Shown: positions 1 through 6,787 of the stretch, piece by piece
Numbering within the stretch: the stretch's first letter is position 1
How the letters are laid out: each line of letters begins with the position of its first letter
Origin: Candidatus Hydrogenedentes bacterium CG07_land_8_20_14_0_80_42_17
Lineage (GTDB): Bacteria; UBA8481
NCBI GenBank assembly: GCA_002780065.1
Contig: PEWQ01000086.1
Span: forward strand, 9,083-18,220
DNA: 9,138 bases
Reading direction: 5' to 3'
Notes under the pieces: model-generated
Told to the model about the DNA's origin: nothing
Seen by the model: only the letters and a program-made list of their open reading frames with translations
Database searches by the model: none
Translations under genes and position numbers: made by a program

Positions 1-60
1 CTCTACTACGTCAGCATCTACTTCAACAGCCGGCTCCTCTACTACGTCAGCATCTACTTC
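1..60 (+). repeat. In-frame tandem direct repeat, 36-bp period, in the Ser/Thr stalk
   Basis: The 24 bases at 1-24 recur exactly at 37-60. The period is 36 bp, or 12 codons, so the reading frame is kept. The next unit (from about 73) has diverged to a Ser/Thr run. More copies may lie upstream of the window. Such repeats can change in number by slippage or recombination and so alter stalk length. Confidence 0.85.
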
Positions 61-454
61 TACAACTAGTTCCTCTTCTTCCACCACTTCATCAGTCACT
101 ACAACTGTTGCATGCGCTCCGACAATTACGAGCATCACAACTTCTTTCGGATGCACACTCTCGCCGACAGGGGATAATGCTCTGACTCAAAAGAAAAACA
201 CTACCGCCACTTATACAATAACCCTCGGAGGCACAACAAGCTGTGTCACACACGTAACCGTTACGACTATCTCCGGCAGTGCGATCTCGAGTTATCCTAC
301 TCAGACAGATTATTCGTCGCCTTACGCGCTTACAATCAAGACAGTCAATGCATCCGGTCGATCATCTGTCGTAGAATTTCAGGTTTACGAAAATACCACT
401 CTAAAGGCTTCATTTCAGGTCACCATCAGCACGGCTTCAAGCAACGCATGCTAG
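2..454 (+). CDS. 3' end of a Ser/Thr-rich secreted or surface protein with a four-Cys beta-rich C-terminal domain (5' partial)
   Basis: The frame is open from the window edge and ends in TAG at 452-454, giving 150 visible residues. Residues 1-36 are almost entirely Ser, Thr, Ala and Gly, with a 12-residue repeat (STTSASTSTAGS, then STTSASTSTTSS). This resembles an extended mucin-like stalk or linker. Residues 37-150 alternate short hydrophobic and Thr/Ser-rich stretches (TYTITL, VTHVTVTTI, YALTIKT, VVEFQVYE, SFQVTIST), which suggests an Ig-like or other beta-sandwich domain. Its cysteines are at visible residues 38, 51, 81 and 150. The first and last bracket the domain, and the last is the C-terminal residue, which suggests disulfides outside the cytoplasm. 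No C-terminal anchor or sorting signal is seen. I do not recognise the family. The stalk could carry O-glycans, which would fit the adjacent glycosyltransferase genes, but that is inference. Confidence 0.7.
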   Translation, partial: STTSASTSTAGSSTTSASTSTTSSSSSTTSSVTTTVACAPTITSITTSFGCTLSPTGDNALTQKKNTTATYTITLGGTTSCVTHVTVTTISGSAISSYPTQTDYSSPYALTIKTVNASGRSSVVEFQVYENTTLKASFQVTISTASSNAC

Positions 455-460
455 TAGTGA

Positions 461-2134
461 TTAGTGATTACATTTTATAAGTTTGAAAACCCACTCACGC
501 TCACATTCAGCCTTTGATACAGTTTCCGTGTCTCTGTATCGCGCAAGAAAATCTTTACCTAGCGCAAAATTGCGATCAAAAGGAGGAGGAGCAATATCCC
601 AATAGTTCCAGTGATAATAAATCGCATATTTTTTTCCGAGCGCGTCCATCTCAAAAGGATGAGCAAGTGCCCAAACAAGCTGTATCGAGGCTCTGCCGCA
701 GTTTGACCAGATTGACGGTGTGTGAGAAACTACAATTGCATCGCCCGGTAAATTCCTGTTCAAAATTATAATCGCAGAATGTTCTTCCCTCGCCTGCCTC
801 GCCTCTTCCGTCTTAATCGGAACTAGCGTCAATGAGTTCGCCATGAATCCAAAAACAATTATGACAGACAATATCGCATTCTTCAAAATGCCTTCCTGTT
901 TCAACAGCTTCAAAAAAAATCCGACAACTTCTGTTATTCCCTTCGCCGCAAATAAAGCGACAACAGGAAGCGGCAGTAATGAAAAGCGAACGTCGGTTCC
1001 GTAATAATAAGATCCTGCGTAAAAAGGAATGAAGATTCCAAAAAATAATATTCCCCACAGAATCAGCAAAACATCTCTTCTCAATAATTCCAAATAATTT
1101 TTCTTCCGTATTTTTGAGAAGATAGAAATTAAAGCTCCGAGCACTGCTAGAATCGAGATACCTGCAGGCGCCGAAAACGTGTTGCCAATCTTCTCGTTTC
1201 CGAACCACCATCCAAGATTTTGAGCGAGATTTCTTTGAAGATAAGCAAATGAAAACTTAGCTTCGCTCGCGCCCCAGCTCTCGTTAGAAAAAGTTGATAA
1301 AAGAAGAAGATGCGGAAACAAAAGAATCGCCGCGGCAATAACAATGACAGCGACGATTTTTATTTCTTTGAGGTTTCTAAACTGCGCGTTCGAAAATGCT
1401 GCAAAGAAAAACGGCAAAAAAATCAATATGCCTTCCGGCCTAATTTGAGCCGAGTAAGTTGCAGTCAAAAGCCCAAGCCACATCAAAATTCTGTCGTTCT
1501 TTCTTGACGACCTGAATGCAAAAGCCAGTGACCATATTGCAAGACTCACCGCAGAAATCTCAGCGGCAGAGCATGCCGCCCATCGAAGATTTTCGGGCCA
1601 CAAAGCAAAAATGAGAGGAGCCAAAATAAATGTATTTGAATTGAAAAGTCCGGTCTCTTTTGCGAGAAATCCAAGTCCGATCGTACCAAGCGCAAAGAAT
1701 AATAAATTTGTTATCGTACCGCTATTGTCGCTCACTCCGAAAATTCTCGACACAATAGAAATTAGAAATGGAAATCCGTTAGGTTCCTTGTTAAGAGAAT
1801 ATCTGAGTCCGGTCCAGCTTCTTCCTTCATCAGCCGGAATCGCACAATCGAGCATTCCGGATCGAAAGTCCTTCGCTATCGAATGCCCAATCTGAATGTA
1901 GATGTCCTCGTCGAAAAACAATCTGTGACGTTCCGAAGAGAAAAAAAACGCCGAGGCAACTCCAAGCGCGGCAATAAGACAAAGAGAAAATATAATTTTC
2001 TTCTGATCGAGTAATTTTTTCCAATCCTGCACAGCAAGATAAATTACAAGCACAAAGAGCATAAAAAGATGCACGGCCAAAGTGTAAGGAAAAATTTTTA
2101 TCAATGCGGAATGGATTATTTCTCTAGTCATCAT
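461..2134 (-). CDS. Multi-pass membrane glycosyltransferase, GT-C fold, PMT/ArnT-like (GT39-type)
   Basis: The product has 557 residues. About ten or more hydrophobic segments fill residues 10-440, and a soluble tail of about 115 residues follows. Family features include an acidic FDED motif (residues 74-77) in the first large loop after a membrane helix, where GT-C enzymes keep catalytic Asp/Glu. Others are EPNGFP (117-122, compare the usual KPPGYP), IRPEG (231-235) and a TDVRFSLLPLP stretch (380-390) like the late-helix motif of PMT_2 proteins. Known relatives transfer a sugar from a polyprenyl phosphate to protein or lipid on the outer membrane face. Donor and acceptor here are unknown. 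The start is ATG-ATG, inside the end of the carbamoyltransferase gene (11-bp overlap), so coupled translation is likely. It is the last gene of the run, and its stop lies 6 bp from that of the convergent surface-protein gene. Confidence 0.8.
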   Translation of the reverse strand: MMTREIIHSALIKIFPYTLAVHLFMLFVLVIYLAVQDWKKLLDQKKIIFSLCLIAALGVASAFFFSSERHRLFFDEDIYIQIGHSIAKDFRSGMLDCAIPADEGRSWTGLRYSLNKEPNGFPFLISIVSRIFGVSDNSGTITNLLFFALGTIGLGFLAKETGLFNSNTFILAPLIFALWPENLRWAACSAAEISAVSLAIWSLAFAFRSSRKNDRILMWLGLLTATYSAQIRPEGILIFLPFFFAAFSNAQFRNLKEIKIVAVIVIAAAILLFPHLLLLSTFSNESWGASEAKFSFAYLQRNLAQNLGWWFGNEKIGNTFSAPAGISILAVLGALISIFSKIRKKNYLELLRRDVLLILWGILFFGIFIPFYAGSYYYGTDVRFSLLPLPVVALFAAKGITEVVGFFLKLLKQEGILKNAILSVIIVFGFMANSLTLVPIKTEEARQAREEHSAIIILNRNLPGDAIVVSHTPSIWSNCGRASIQLVWALAHPFEMDALGKKYAIYYHWNYWDIAPPPFDRNFALGKDFLARYRDTETVSKAECEREWVFKLIKCNH

Positions 2135-3797
2135 TCCGAATGATCTCTATCTTTCCTCCAATAACTAGCGAGGACAATCCTGATCTCAAAAATGCATCAA
2201 TTGCATCTGACTCGGTTCGAACAATTGGATCTCCGTGAATATTGAATGAGGTATTCAATACTCCTCCAATTCCAATTTTCTTTTCGACTTCAAGAACTAA
2301 CTCCAGAAAAACCTTTTCTTCTAGAGTTTCAGGAGTCTTCGAAAGTATCTGAGGTCTGCATGAGCCATCAGGTCCGATCACGCCTTCAAGTCTCTTACTT
2401 CCTCCGGCATTGGTTCCATAAAGAGAGGTCATCCATCGTTCATCTCGACCGTCATAATTTAAAAGTGAACGTTCAGCTTCAAGATGAGTAAGCGTTGGAC
2501 AAAACGGCTGGAAGAAGACGCGCTTCTTCTGAGCTAAATTCAATCTGTCTCGAATAGTTCTGTCATCGGGCCGAGCAAGAATCGAGCGAGCGCCAAGCGC
2601 ACGAGGACCGTATTCCATTCTTCCGTTCACCCAGCCTATCGACTCACCTTTCGCAATTCTCTCAGCTGCCTTTTCGAGAGAAGTATTCCTTACATTCAAT
2701 CCGCGTTCTCTAGCAATTGCGACAGCTCTATCGCAATCAATCTCCGCTCCAAGAAAAGGCTGAATCGAAATCTGTTCGTCCAGTGCCGCTCCAAGCGCAA
2801 GCCCGCCGTCGCCCATGTTTGGAAAGACCCAAATGTCTGAGAGTTTATCCTCAAAAAGTTTTTCACGGAGCAGACGATTTATTCTTACATTTGAAAAGAG
2901 CCCACCCGCTACTGCGACATTCGTAATCCCCGTCATTTTGACCGCGGCTTTTACTAGAGCTATTACCGCGCGCTCGGTCATCCTCTGCACCATCGCCGCA
3001 AATCGCTCGGGGCCGCGCCGCCATAAACACTCTTTCAGCCTTCGATAAGCATTCCTATTTACCTTTACGGATATACCATTCAAATCTGAAATCTCTATGA
3101 CCTCATCGAGAACACTCCGTTCATCCTCGCCTAAATCTGCGTGCGCCGCTAAAGCCATAACCTTACCTTCATCTTCAAGTTCACGCAGATTCAAAAGTCT
3201 CGTCGCTTCCTCATAAAGCAATGCTATGGAATCCCGCCCGCTAATTCCGGTAATCAATTCCATCTTTCCTTCAGTTCCCACAGCTACTGCTCCGGAGCAT
3301 GCGTCTCCGATTCCATCGAGCGAAATAACTGTTGCAGAAGAAAAAGGCGAAGTGAAGAATGCGGACCTGAGATGCGCTTCATGATGGTCGATTGTTCTTA
3401 CAGATATTTTTTCAAACCCGGTTCGTCGTCTGATGATAAATCGCGTCAAAGCCGCGCAACCTGCCATCGGCGGCAGTTGTGTAGCAAAAGACTTGAACCA
3501 ACTCTTTGCCGAATCGAATCGGCTCGGAGCAATTCTGTGTCGTCTGAACAGATAATAATTCTTACCCAAACATGGAAAGATTCTCGTCAGAACTTTCGAT
3601 GGATCTGTCGTGGAAATAACTATTTCATCCGGTTCGCCGCAACAAGCCAAAGCATCTTCAAATGAAAGATACGGGAATCCGACTTCCAATTTTTGCCGGC
3701 TAAACCGCTCTTCATTCGATGCATAAAGTATTTTTTCTCCCTCGACGACAGCAACTCCAGAATCATGTCCGTCCCAGATTCCGAAAACTTTCTTCAC
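2124..3797 (-). CDS. O-carbamoyltransferase, NodU/CmcH family
   Basis: The product has 557 residues, close to the usual length for this family, and both domains look complete. The N-terminal Kae1-like domain begins GIWDGHDSG (6-14) and carries the metal/carbamoyl-adenylate HHEAH motif (138-142), SLDGIGD (159-165), EDEGKVMALA (208-217), VAGGLFSNVRIN (296-307) and NMGDGGLALG (327-336). The C-terminal domain carries GRMEYGPRALGARSIL (392-407) and NTSFNIHGDPIV (515-526), both family hallmarks. These enzymes use carbamoyl phosphate and ATP to carbamoylate a hydroxyl group, often on a sugar or antibiotic. With glycosyltransferases on both sides, a surface or lipid-linked sugar is the likely target (inference). 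The start is GTG, overlapping the TGA of the GT2 gene as GTGA, so translation is probably coupled. No strong SD is seen. Confidence 0.93.
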   Translation of the reverse strand: MKKVFGIWDGHDSGVAVVEGEKILYASNEERFSRQKLEVGFPYLSFEDALACCGEPDEIVISTTDPSKVLTRIFPCLGKNYYLFRRHRIAPSRFDSAKSWFKSFATQLPPMAGCAALTRFIIRRRTGFEKISVRTIDHHEAHLRSAFFTSPFSSATVISLDGIGDACSGAVAVGTEGKMELITGISGRDSIALLYEEATRLLNLRELEDEGKVMALAAHADLGEDERSVLDEVIEISDLNGISVKVNRNAYRRLKECLWRRGPERFAAMVQRMTERAVIALVKAAVKMTGITNVAVAGGLFSNVRINRLLREKLFEDKLSDIWVFPNMGDGGLALGAALDEQISIQPFLGAEIDCDRAVAIARERGLNVRNTSLEKAAERIAKGESIGWVNGRMEYGPRALGARSILARPDDRTIRDRLNLAQKKRVFFQPFCPTLTHLEAERSLLNYDGRDERWMTSLYGTNAGGSKRLEGVIGPDGSCRPQILSKTPETLEEKVFLELVLEVEKKIGIGGVLNTSFNIHGDPIVRTESDAIDAFLRSGLSSLVIGGKIEIIRNDD

Positions 3798-4465
3798 AAC
3801 AAAACATCCCGTATCAGAGACCAGAGATATTTTGGAGCATCGAAGATCGGATCGATATGACTCTTTCCTGCTTTTCGCGAATATTCATGAGAAGGTATCT
3901 CTGCGACTCTAGCGCCAAGCTTCAGCGCTTTTGCAAGCATCTCCTGCTCGATAGTCGTAGAGTTTGAACGAAGTTTCATTCTCAAAAGTAAATCCTTTCT
4001 GACAGCCCGAAAACCATTTTGACTATCCGAAATTCTTACTTTGAATTTTTTGTTAATGCAGGCTGTAATGAACGCGGAACCTGTGAGCCGCAGGAACTCA
4101 TCGAATCCGCCATGCAGTTCGGAAGACCCGCCGCGCAGTCTCGACGCAATAACAATATCAGCCGAGTCGATTCGAATAAGTTCTACCAGCTTTGGAATAT
4201 CGCGAGGTTCATGCGAACCATCAGCGTCTATAAAAACAATGATCTCGTATTTTGCTTCGAACGCGGCCTTGCGAATCGCAACACCTTTTCCGCCGCCTCC
4301 GTCATAAACCGCACGAGCCCCAGCATTGCGCGCATTCTCTACTGTCCTATCACGCGAACCGCCGTCCAGAACAATAACCTCATCACCAAAAGGTTTCACT
4401 CCTTCGATAACTTCAGCAATCGTCTCCCCTTCATTCAAAGCTGGTATGACTATAGTGACTTTCAT
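3794..4465 (-). CDS. Family-2 glycosyltransferase, DPM1-like (polyprenyl-phosphate sugar synthase type)
   Basis: The product has 223 residues in a single GT-A domain. It opens with VTIVIPALNEGETI (3-16). It has VLDGGSRDRT (32-41), the nucleotide-binding and Lys-containing GGGGKGVAIRKA (56-67), and the metal-binding DAD in FIDADGS (79-83). SDSQNGFRAVRKDLL (146-160) and EQEMLAKA (173-180) follow. This order matches DPM1-type enzymes, which load a sugar from a GDP- or UDP-sugar onto a polyprenyl phosphate. There is no C-terminal membrane segment, so the enzyme is probably cytosolic or peripheral. It would supply donors to the GT-C proteins in this window (inference). It starts at ATG 15 bp after the upstream gene and overlaps the next by 4 bp. 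The sugar cannot be told from sequence. Confidence 0.9.
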   Translation of the reverse strand: MKVTIVIPALNEGETIAEVIEGVKPFGDEVIVLDGGSRDRTVENARNAGARAVYDGGGGKGVAIRKAAFEAKYEIIVFIDADGSHEPRDIPKLVELIRIDSADIVIASRLRGGSSELHGGFDEFLRLTGSAFITACINKKFKVRISDSQNGFRAVRKDLLLRMKLRSNSTTIEQEMLAKALKLGARVAEIPSHEYSRKAGKSHIDPIFDAPKYLWSLIRDVLL

Positions 4466-5017: not shown

Positions 5018-5026
5018 AAAAGGCGG
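5018..5026 (+). promoter_or_regulatory. SD-like site that supports an ATT start at 5035
   Basis: AAAAGGCGG differs by one base from a strong AAAAGGAGG. It lies 8 bases before ATT at 5035. No ATG, GTG or TTG occurs in this frame between the stop at 4993-4995 and TTG at 5149. TTG at 5149 has no SD and would cut off the first strand and helix of the Rossmann domain. Confidence 0.5.
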
Positions 5027-5034
5027 AAGCTTCT

Positions 5035-6030
5035 ATTAAAACTTTTGCGTTTCTGATATCAAGACAAAAGCGGCATCTTTTCCCGGATACTTGGTGGCTC
5101 CGCGCTGTTCACTCGGTTTCCGCCCGCTTCGTCTCCCGCGGTTTTATTTTGGTAACAGGCATCGGAGGCAACATACATAATTTCCCCGCGTGGTCATTCA
5201 GAAGTTTCAGAGGAAGAATAAAAACAATCGAAATGAAGTCCGGACCTCTTTCTGCTGAAGGTCCGCTCAGAGATAAAAAAATACTTAATGAAGTTGATAC
5301 TGTTGTAGCTGTCTCGGTGAGAGACAACGGCAATATGCTGGAGCTTGGTCTTAAAGCTATTGCAGACAAAAAAGAAGTCTTCGTGATTCCGCCTCCGGAT
5401 AATTCAAAATATTTTGAAGGCAACAGAAAACTTTTAAAAGCCGGAATAAAAACTTTAAATATCGAGATACAACTGCCCGAACCCAAAAAATCAAAACCTA
5501 TTTTCGCTGAGAATTCTCCGTCCTCTGACTATATCTGGCACTTTACCAAACGCTCTACATGTCCGTGGCCTGGCCAATCTTTAGATGAATACTTTGAATC
5601 ACTAATCGATAATGAACCGGGCTCGTCTCATTCGGCTCTCGATGCATTGAACCGAATTCTTCAAGAAAAATGTATTCGTGCGAGCAAAAAGCTGATCAAA
5701 GGCAAATATCCGGTTGTCTGTTTTACAGCTTGCAGTCCCAAAAAGTTAATGGGAATGAAGCAGTATCGAGCCGCGCTTTTGAGATGGAACTACGAACCAT
5801 TCGGTATTGGAATACCAATAGAAATCGCAAAATCAGTCGGAATAAAACCAGTCAAATACCTCCCGCCAGAGCAATATAGCGGGATTAAACCTGAAGAACG
5901 ATTTCTTTACCAAAAGCATTTGCCGCCGGAAATTGATTATTCTGCAGAGCAAGAGTGGCGGCACCTCGGAGATCTAAATTTGTCTAACATTTCAAATAAA
6001 GATATCTTCACCTATTGCGAAAACTTTTAA
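5035..6030 (+). CDS. Two-domain protein: SLOG/DprA-like Rossmann domain plus AbiGi/DUF2971-like domain
   Basis: The frame gives 331 residues from ATT, or 293 from TTG at 5149. Residues 1-145 fit a SLOG (DprA/LOG-type) nucleotide-binding domain. The pieces are a first strand with an SR motif (KTFAFLISRQK), the segment SRGFILVTGIGGNIH (34-48), and DTVVAVSVRDNGNMLELG (88-105) followed by KKEVFVIPPP, very like the later DprA strand. Residues 165-331 contain CPWPGQSLDEYF, an Arg/Ala-rich helix (CIRASKKLIKG), PVVCFTACSP (226-235), YEPFGIGI and EQEWRHLGD (305-313). This layout resembles AbiGi-antitoxin and DUF2971 proteins from phage-defence settings. Substrate and role are unknown. The start may be a true ATT, a mutated ATG or a sequence error. 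The stop overlaps that of the convergent gene. It shares no theme with the glycan genes, so it may be a mobile or accessory insertion. Confidence 0.7.
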   Translation: MKTFAFLISRQKRHLFPDTWWLRAVHSVSARFVSRGFILVTGIGGNIHNFPAWSFRSFRGRIKTIEMKSGPLSAEGPLRDKKILNEVDTVVAVSVRDNGNMLELGLKAIADKKEVFVIPPPDNSKYFEGNRKLLKAGIKTLNIEIQLPEPKKSKPIFAENSPSSDYIWHFTKRSTCPWPGQSLDEYFESLIDNEPGSSHSALDALNRILQEKCIRASKKLIKGKYPVVCFTACSPKKLMGMKQYRAALLRWNYEPFGIGIPIEIAKSVGIKPVKYLPPEQYSGIKPEERFLYQKHLPPEIDYSAEQEWRHLGDLNLSNISNKDIFTYCENF

Positions 6031-6755
6031 CGTATCAATCCTGTTTCAATCGCCGCATCGGAAGAAAGCAGACACATTCCGTGAACGCACAGGTGAACTC
6101 CTTCTCCATCAAAAACAGGAGCTAGAAAACTTGCTTCTCGAGTTGAAATTAATTTTTTAAAATCAGTCAAAGTAATCCATCTTATCTTCCTATAGCTTGC
6201 GGTTTGCGTTGGAATAAATTCAGCTCCTTTTAGCCGCACTTCAATGTTCAACATCATTGCTTGCTCGCGATAAACTGTTTCTCCGTTTAAGATTATTTTT
6301 TCTCCGGGGATCTCGACATCTTTCTCTTCGTAAAAAACTTCTCCTTCAAGTAACACACGCGGTCGGGCAATAAACTTCACCTTTCCGCTCTCCAAATAAT
6401 CAGCTAAACCGAGTTTCGTAGATAGCAGAGATTCAACCGTAAAGATAACCGAATTATGCCCCTTCTCTTTTTCATTGTCCGAAATTGCAGTTGAAAGACT
6501 GAATGTCTTTCTTACCCGTTCAGGGAAGTCGCAATCCGGCTTCTTTGTCAATACAGCCGAACACCGCTTCATGATATCGTCATAAATCGATTCCGGTATT
6601 CTCTGAGTAGGCACGCTTACTACATTCGAATGAGTCGGGTTAGTATCCTCGCTTCTAATGCCGACCAAAATTCTCTTCTCCCCTCTGGATTCATCATCAA
6701 AGATGCTGAGAACAACTATTTTTGACGGTCTAGAAGGATCAATTCCATATTTCAT
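6027..6755 (-). CDS. Conserved-looking hypothetical protein, possibly a divergent Nudix-like fold
   Basis: The product has 242 residues from ATG at 6755. A TTG at 6773 would add six residues, but it sits on the SD itself. GGAGG at 6767-6771 lies 11 bases before the ATG, so I prefer the ATG. Visible blocks are an early strand (KIVVLSIFDD), ILVGIRSEDTNPTHSN (29-44) then VVSVPTQRIP (45-54), NSVIFTVESLLSTKLGLAD (101-119), ARPRVLLEGEVFYEE, YREQAMMLNIEV (162-173), YRKIRWITLTDFKKL (188-202) and CVHGMCLLSS (223-232). Strand order, the ESLLSTKLGL helix and the late 'IRWITLTDF' strand recall Nudix proteins. The catalytic Nudix box with its paired Glu residues is not intact, so hydrolysis is doubtful. 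I do not recognise a named family. It converges with the SLOG/AbiGi-like gene and shares 4 bp with it, and the two may have been inherited together. Confidence 0.6.
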   Translation of the reverse strand: MKYGIDPSRPSKIVVLSIFDDESRGEKRILVGIRSEDTNPTHSNVVSVPTQRIPESIYDDIMKRCSAVLTKKPDCDFPERVRKTFSLSTAISDNEKEKGHNSVIFTVESLLSTKLGLADYLESGKVKFIARPRVLLEGEVFYEEKDVEIPGEKIILNGETVYREQAMMLNIEVRLKGAEFIPTQTASYRKIRWITLTDFKKLISTREASFLAPVFDGEGVHLCVHGMCLLSSDAAIETGLIR

Positions 6756-6787
6756 TGAAATGACTTCCTCCAATAAATTATTGAGTT

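What the first reader, a model, noticed from the sequence alone, without database searches (positions are those of the whole stretch)
5035..6030. SLOG/DprA-like domain fused to an AbiGi/DUF2971-like domain: a candidate conflict or signalling protein
The sequence shows a Rossmann domain with a late DprA-like strand and an NGNMLELG turn. It is followed by a domain with CFTACSP, a YEPFGIGI block and EQEWRHLGD. SLOG domains bind or process nucleotides and occur in nucleotide-signal defence systems. AbiGi and DUF2971 proteins are tied to phage resistance. A single chain joining a nucleotide sensor to such a domain suggests a sensor-effector. The function is inference.
Basis: partly seen in the sequence, partly recalled or inferred. 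Interest (0 to 1): 0.62.

Follow-up and report, generated by a model that had tools for sequence, protein, structure and literature searches.

The report
Core gene fusing DprA-like, AbiGi-like domains
This gene makes a two-part protein, a DNA- or nucleotide-binding module of the DprA type joined to a module shaped like ADP-ribosyl-transferring enzymes; it looks like an undescribed protein that several little-known bacterial phyla inherit as a normal, nearly universal single gene, so the first guess of a phage-defence gene is not supported by its surroundings.

Summary
The frame 5035-6030 is a real gene: full-length homologues, with both halves, occur in at least five phylum-level groups. The predicted structure (pLDDT 93.4, pTM 0.87) shows residues 1-146 to be a SLOG domain closest to DprA (Z 14.5 over 137 residues). 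Residues 160-331 are homologous by profile comparison to AbiGi (P 6e-9) and DUF2971 (P 3e-6); shuffled controls give P of 0.07 or more. Folded alone, this half resembles ADP-ribosyltransferase (ART) folds weakly but consistently: DarT is best, Z 5.9, and nearly all rows are ARTs. H-x-T and E-x-E-W-R motifs are conserved. The conflict interpretation is only partly supported: the gene is single-copy and near-universal in some phyla (108 of 132 genomes in one; 8/8, 3/3, 11/17 in others), its tree follows taxonomy, its neighbours are ordinary and change, and it was not found in the phage, plasmid or viral collections searched. The genome has its own DprA. Best reading: a vertically inherited, probably NAD-using ADP-ribosyltransferase governed by a DprA-like nucleic-acid or nucleotide sensor. 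Architecture is shown by computation; activity is inferred. No Pfam or NCBIfam model covers it, and I found no description in the papers held.

The parts
5035..6030 (+). Whole gene, 331 aa, SLOG(DprA-like)-AbiGi/ART-like fusion
5020..5026 (+). AAGGCGG, Shine-Dalgarno-like, 8 nt before the probable ATT start at 5035
   Evidence: start inferred from the aligned ATG of the homologue
5035..5472 (+). SLOG (DprA-like Rossmann) domain, residues 1-146
   Evidence: VIA-align Z 14.5, 1.9 A over 137 residues to S. pneumoniae DprA 3uqz; Foldseek E 7e-6
5056..5067 (+). I8-S9-R10-Q11 loop after the first strand (family NSRQ; S 57/59, R 49/59), at the place of DprA's GSR
5269..5331 (+). R79-D80 and R96-x-x-G99, at the place of the DprA RNR and SG.L motifs
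   Evidence: R79 57/59, D80 58/59, R96 51/59, G99 56/59; assignment to DprA motifs is inference
5512..6027 (+). AbiGi/DUF2971-like domain with ART-like fold, residues 160-331
   Evidence: hhalign; structure
5539..5547 (+). H169-F-T171 (H 59/59, T 58/59), candidate H of the ART triad
   Evidence: role inferred
5719..5727 (+). C229-F230-T231 (F 55/59), candidate second triad position (F in place of Y)
   Evidence: role inferred
5947..5961 (+). E305-Q-E307-W308-R309 (both E and R 59/59), candidate catalytic glutamate
   Evidence: shared with AbiGi and DUF2971

Best explanation
The gene encodes a member of an undescribed family in which a DprA-type SLOG domain is built onto an AbiGi/DUF2971-type domain with the probable fold of ADP-ribosyltransferases. 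It is a chromosomal, vertically inherited gene of several bacterial phyla, not a mobile defence gene. Most likely mechanism (inferred): the SLOG half binds single-stranded nucleic acid or a nucleotide ligand in its conserved S-R / R-D / R-x-x-G pocket, and this binding positions or switches on the C-terminal half, which uses NAD+ through the invariant H169 and E307 to attach ADP-ribose to a target, plausibly nucleic acid as DarT and KptA act on, or to cleave NAD+. Shown by computation: fold and homology of the SLOG half, homology of the C half to AbiGi/DUF2971, conservation, distribution. Inferred: ART catalysis, ligand, target, coupling of the two halves.
For: Structure model pLDDT 93.4, pTM 0.87. 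SLOG half: DprA Z 14.5/13.3/13.1, then LOG about 10.8, ShosA 10.7, ThsA SLOG bound to 3'cADPR 9.3. C half vs true AbiGi members P 5.7e-9, vs DUF2971 P 3.4e-6; reversed or shuffled profiles P 0.07-0.89. Separate Pfam scans of members: AbiGi hit in 15 of 59, DUF2971 in 3. C half model (pLDDT 92.4): top rows DarT Z 5.9-5.1, TreX 5.3, KptA/Tpt1 5.2, then PltA, Arr, PARP1, RES, ParT, nearly all ARTs. H169, E305, E307 and R309 are 59/59, which argues for an active site. Typically one copy in 108/132, 8/8, 3/3, 11/17 and 2/2 genomes of five phylum-level groups. Tree needs 9 label changes, the minimum, against 27.2 shuffled. Own genome has a canonical DprA elsewhere.
Against: ART matches have Z under 8 and no Foldseek E below 0.001, so the ART fold is probable, not proven. 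The second triad position seems to be F, not Y. Sequence profiles find no ART in the PDB. A DprA-like fold does not tell ssDNA from nucleotide ligands. No partner gene (such as an ADP-ribosylhydrolase) recurs beside it.
Confidence: 0.5

Rival explanations
1. It is a chromosomal anti-phage or abortive-infection protein: SLOG senses a cyclic ADP-ribose-type signal or phage-made ssDNA and the AbiGi/ART half kills or stalls the cell.
For: Homology of the C half to AbiGi and DUF2971; the SLOG of ThsA and DprA-like ShosA are defence proteins (PMC9503650; PMC12593503).
Against: Near-universal single copy, tree follows taxonomy, ordinary neighbours, not found on phages, plasmids or viral contigs. PADLOC hits among 115 neighbours are generic domains such as subtilase and methyltransferase.
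Confidence: 0.2
2. It is a nucleic-acid maintenance or RNA/tRNA enzyme: SLOG holds ssDNA or RNA and the ART-like half removes or adds a group as KptA/Tpt1 does.
For: DprA, an ssDNA binder, is the nearest SLOG; KptA/Tpt1 and DarT, which act on nucleic acids, are among the best C-half matches; vertical inheritance. Single cases next to miaA or mnmG.
Against: Those neighbours do not recur; the KptA matches cover only about 85 residues; the substrate is unknown.
Confidence: 0.2
3. The C half has lost catalysis and the protein is a binding or regulatory scaffold.
For: F in place of Y at the presumed second triad position; AbiGi is annotated as antitoxin in Pfam.
Against: H169, E305, E307 and R309 unchanged in 59 of 59 diverged sequences.
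Confidence: 0.1

Closest known systems
DprA / Smf (PF02481), SLOG superfamily
   Same: Residues 1-146 share the Rossmann core and the order of conserved loops; best structural match (Z 14.5)
   Different: No SAM or winged-helix part; fused to another domain; the genome has its own DprA; no Pfam match
AbiGi (PF10899)
   Same: C half: H near the start, CF-x-x-x-P, YGIg, G..PV.Y, E-x-EWR; profile P 5.7e-9
   Different: AbiGi stands alone and is described as paired with abiGii; here fused to SLOG, single, vertical; window protein not over the Pfam cut-off
DUF2971 (PF11185)
   Same: Weaker profile match (P 3.4e-6), shared V.Y and E-x-EWR
   Different: No NDP motif, no fusion to SLOG in the DUF2971 members seen here
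DarT and KptA/Tpt1 (ART superfamily)
   Same: Predicted fold, H on the first strand, E on a late strand
   Different: Low Z (5.9 and 5.2), no sequence match, F rather than Y at the presumed second position, no DarG-like partner seen
ThsA (SIR2-SLOG, Thoeris)
   Same: A SLOG domain in one chain with an NAD-using-type domain
   Different: Other effector fold and order, defence operon with thsB; here none

Membership tests
SLOG superfamily (DprA-like clade) | SLOG Rossmannoid fold | tested here: met
   Z 14.5 to DprA, 9-12 to LOG, MCP and ThsA SLOG
SLOG superfamily (DprA-like clade) | Conserved phosphate-binding loops (GSR, SG..G, RNR-type) | tested here: inconclusive
   S9, R10, G44, R79-D80, R96, G99 conserved; mapping to DprA is by order along the chain, inferred
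SLOG superfamily (DprA-like clade) | Nucleotide or ssDNA binding | not testable with these tools
   needs binding assay
DprA proper | PF02481 profile match and DprA domain set | tested here: not met
   no Pfam match; canonical DprA elsewhere in the genome
AbiGi (PF10899) | Profile homology | tested here: met
   hhalign P 5.7e-9 with members over the cut-off; single-sequence scan under the cut-off
AbiGi (PF10899) | Adjacent abiGii partner / bicistronic unit | tested here: not met
   window neighbours are glycosyltransferases, a carbamoyltransferase and orphans; neighbours of homologues vary
DUF2971 (PF11185) | Profile homology | tested here: met
   hhalign P 3.4e-6, prob 87.7; 3 of 59 by Pfam, best E 0.054
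ADP-ribosyltransferase superfamily | ART fold | tested here: inconclusive
   nearly all ranked matches are ARTs but best Z 5.9, no Foldseek E below 0.001
ADP-ribosyltransferase superfamily | H-Y-E (or R-S-E) triad | tested here: inconclusive
   H169 and E307 invariant, F230 at the presumed middle place; residue mapping inferred
ADP-ribosyltransferase superfamily | NAD+ use | not testable with these tools
   needs assay
Anti-phage defence system | Accessory, patchy, horizontally moving, in defence islands or mobile elements | tested here: not met

The most novel reading that the evidence does not exclude
An unrecognised, vertically inherited DNA- or nucleotide-sensing ADP-ribosyltransferase is a normal part of the core genome of several bacterial phyla, and it shows that the AbiGi/DUF2971 defence-linked families are themselves ADP-ribosyltransferases.
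Probability: 0.35. Interest if true: 0.8.

Novelty: new variant of a known kind. Interest (0 to 1): 0.6.

Why it matters
Neither Pfam nor NCBIfam has a model for this protein, yet in one phylum nearly nine of ten good genomes carry it, as a rule in one copy, so these lineages keep something not yet described. If the C half is an ART, AbiGi and DUF2971, families linked to defence without a known activity, gain a testable biochemical hypothesis with named residues (H and E-x-E-W-R). It would also be a case of a domain pair usually met in immune systems serving a core cellular function, or of an immune function fixed in a phylum.

Tried and rejected
Pfam, NCBIfam and PHROGs on the window protein: no Pfam/NCBIfam match, weak PHROG matches of unknown function. 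PDB by sequence with single protein and profiles: only chance hits. Pattern scans of genome contigs found only the relative from the second genome of the phylum. Viral pattern scan none; scans with the wide alignments could not be run. The window genome's DprA as a single sequence against the family profile gave no significant score; the DprA link rests on structure. Paper searches joining AbiG with ADP-ribosyltransferase or ART fold gave nothing relevant; DUF2971 occurs in one paper only. Considered and rejected: a chance open frame (homologues); a second DprA (no SAM or WH part, own DprA elsewhere); a recent mobile-element gene. Names of the phyla could not be read, as genome handles carry none; one homologue is from a MAG titled Candidatus Hydrogenedentota J006.

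Full report
Observation. No ATG, GTG or TTG precedes codon 5149 in this frame, but the homologue in the only other held genome of the same phylum begins with ATG exactly where the window has ATT at 5035, and AAGGCGG lies 8 nt before it. I take ATT as the likely start, with an assembly error in this 207-contig genome as the alternative.

It is a gene. The window's genome holds one copy. The second genome of the phylum has one at 36% identity over 319 residues. A profile from these two found matches in 18 of 386 genomes spread over the bacterial domain: 17 with the two-domain protein (some cut by a contig end) and one (G032) with a stand-alone AbiGi-like protein of 206 aa. Both halves occur together in the homologues, so the fusion is the normal form of the family. 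The median identity to the window is 21% in the first half and 31% in the second.

First half. AlphaFold2 with 59 sequences gave pLDDT 93.4 and pTM 0.87. Residues 1-146 match DprA of S. pneumoniae with Z 14.5 (1.9 A, 137 residues), other DprA at 12.4-13.3, then TM1055, the Moco carrier protein, LOG (10.8), ShosA (10.7) and the ThsA SLOG domain with 3'cADPR (9.3) (Foldseek). Conserved residues are S9-R10 (57 and 49 of 59), G44 (50), R79-D80 (57, 58), R96 (51) and G99 (56); they fall where DprA has GSR, SG..G, RNR and SG.L by order along the chain. That mapping is mine. The genome has a canonical DprA elsewhere, and this protein lacks DprA's other parts, so it is not a DprA.

Second half. The window protein alone has no Pfam match and a weak PADLOC AbiGi match, but 15 of 59 family members match AbiGi and 3 match DUF2971 at E below 1, best 4e-4 and 0.05. 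I collected AbiGi proteins over the Pfam cut-off and DUF2971 proteins and compared profiles: AbiGi P 5.7e-9, DUF2971 P 3.4e-6. Reversed and shuffled versions of these profiles gave P between 0.07 and 0.89. Adding the stand-alone protein of G032 raised the AbiGi score to 1.7e-16, but that protein was itself found with this family's profile, so I rest on the smaller figure. The joint alignment keeps H near the start, F in the CF motif and E-x-E-W-R near the end.

Fold of the second half. Predicted alone (pLDDT 92.4), its ranked structural matches are DarT (Z 5.9 to 5.1), the Rhs toxin TreX, KptA/Tpt1, PltA, Arr, PARP1, RES and ParT, almost all of the ADP-ribosyltransferase superfamily. Each match is weak, and Foldseek gave no E below 0.001. 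What persuades me is that one superfamily fills the list, together with the invariant H169 of H-x-T on the first strand and E305-x-E307-W-R309 on a late strand (59/59 for H, both E and R). In ARTs of the H-Y-E type a histidine on the first strand and a late glutamate hold and act on NAD+ (established knowledge); DarT needs R51 and E160 (PMC9967889). The middle place seems to be F230, not Y.

Distribution. In the phylum of G158 the family is in 108 of 132 genomes, 68 of 78 good ones, with one copy each save for split contigs and one weak second match. It is in 8 of 8 genomes of the phylum of G349/G077, 3 of 3 of G030's and 11 of 17 of G004's. A tree of 59 proteins groups them by taxon with nine changes, the fewest possible, against 27.2 for shuffled labels; single large phyla are split by other groups in places, so deep transfers between phyla are not excluded. 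The gene was not found in phages or plasmids nor by a pattern scan of viral contigs. Its neighbours are conserved only among close relatives. Of 115 flanking proteins the commonest families are subtilases, ABC transporters, methyltransferases and glycosyltransferases, and the PADLOC matches are mostly generic domains.

What it is and how it may work. It is a core-type, mainly vertically inherited fusion of a DprA-like SLOG domain with an AbiGi/DUF2971-type, probably ART-fold, domain. SLOG domains range from enzymes on nucleotides to non-catalytic sensors of cADPR variants or DNA (PMC9503650), and the DprA-like ShosA binds DNA and is thought to promote recombination (PMC12593503). I infer that the first half senses nucleic acid or a nucleotide and the second uses NAD+. 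The activity, ligand and target are not shown.

Against the defence reading. Being near-universal and vertical, without islands or mobile elements, is unlike most anti-phage genes, and AbiGi's own biochemical role is unknown; neither AbiGi nor AbiGii was toxic in E. coli (PMC3985639). A fixed immune gene is still possible, so I keep it as a rival.

Limits. Phylum names could not be read. The searches of 386 genomes and of phylum samples cover only part of known species. Structural residue pairs could not be inspected. Copy counts in fragmented genomes are approximate.

Noticed in passing
window 5035-5037: Probable ATT start codon with AAGGCGG 8 nt upstream; no ATG/GTG/TTG available for the conserved N-terminus.
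   Followed up: partly
window 6027-6773 (-): 248-aa reading frame with no Pfam or NCBIfam match and only a chance-level PHROG match, ending convergently with a few bases of overlap with the gene.
   Followed up: no
window 2-454 (+), full frame L041:8694-9536: Protein with a pilin-like N-terminus (GQGMVEMGL) followed by long Ser/Thr repeats.
   Followed up: no
window 461-4465 (-): Surface-glycan-like cluster: GT-C mannosyltransferase type, carbamoyltransferase, GT2 glycosyltransferase.
   Followed up: no
L040:5100-5720 (-): Stand-alone 206-aa AbiGi-like gene beside a 441-aa unknown and a 71-aa HTH protein; a possible accessory defence locus, unlike the fusion family.
   Followed up: partly
L028:9225-11003 (-): Homologue of 592 aa with a low-complexity insert of about 160 residues between the two domains.
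   Followed up: no
L029:11199-14618, L030:8957-12316, L036:2108-6379: A related large secreted-type protein (one recurring cluster) near the gene in three different loci.
   Followed up: no
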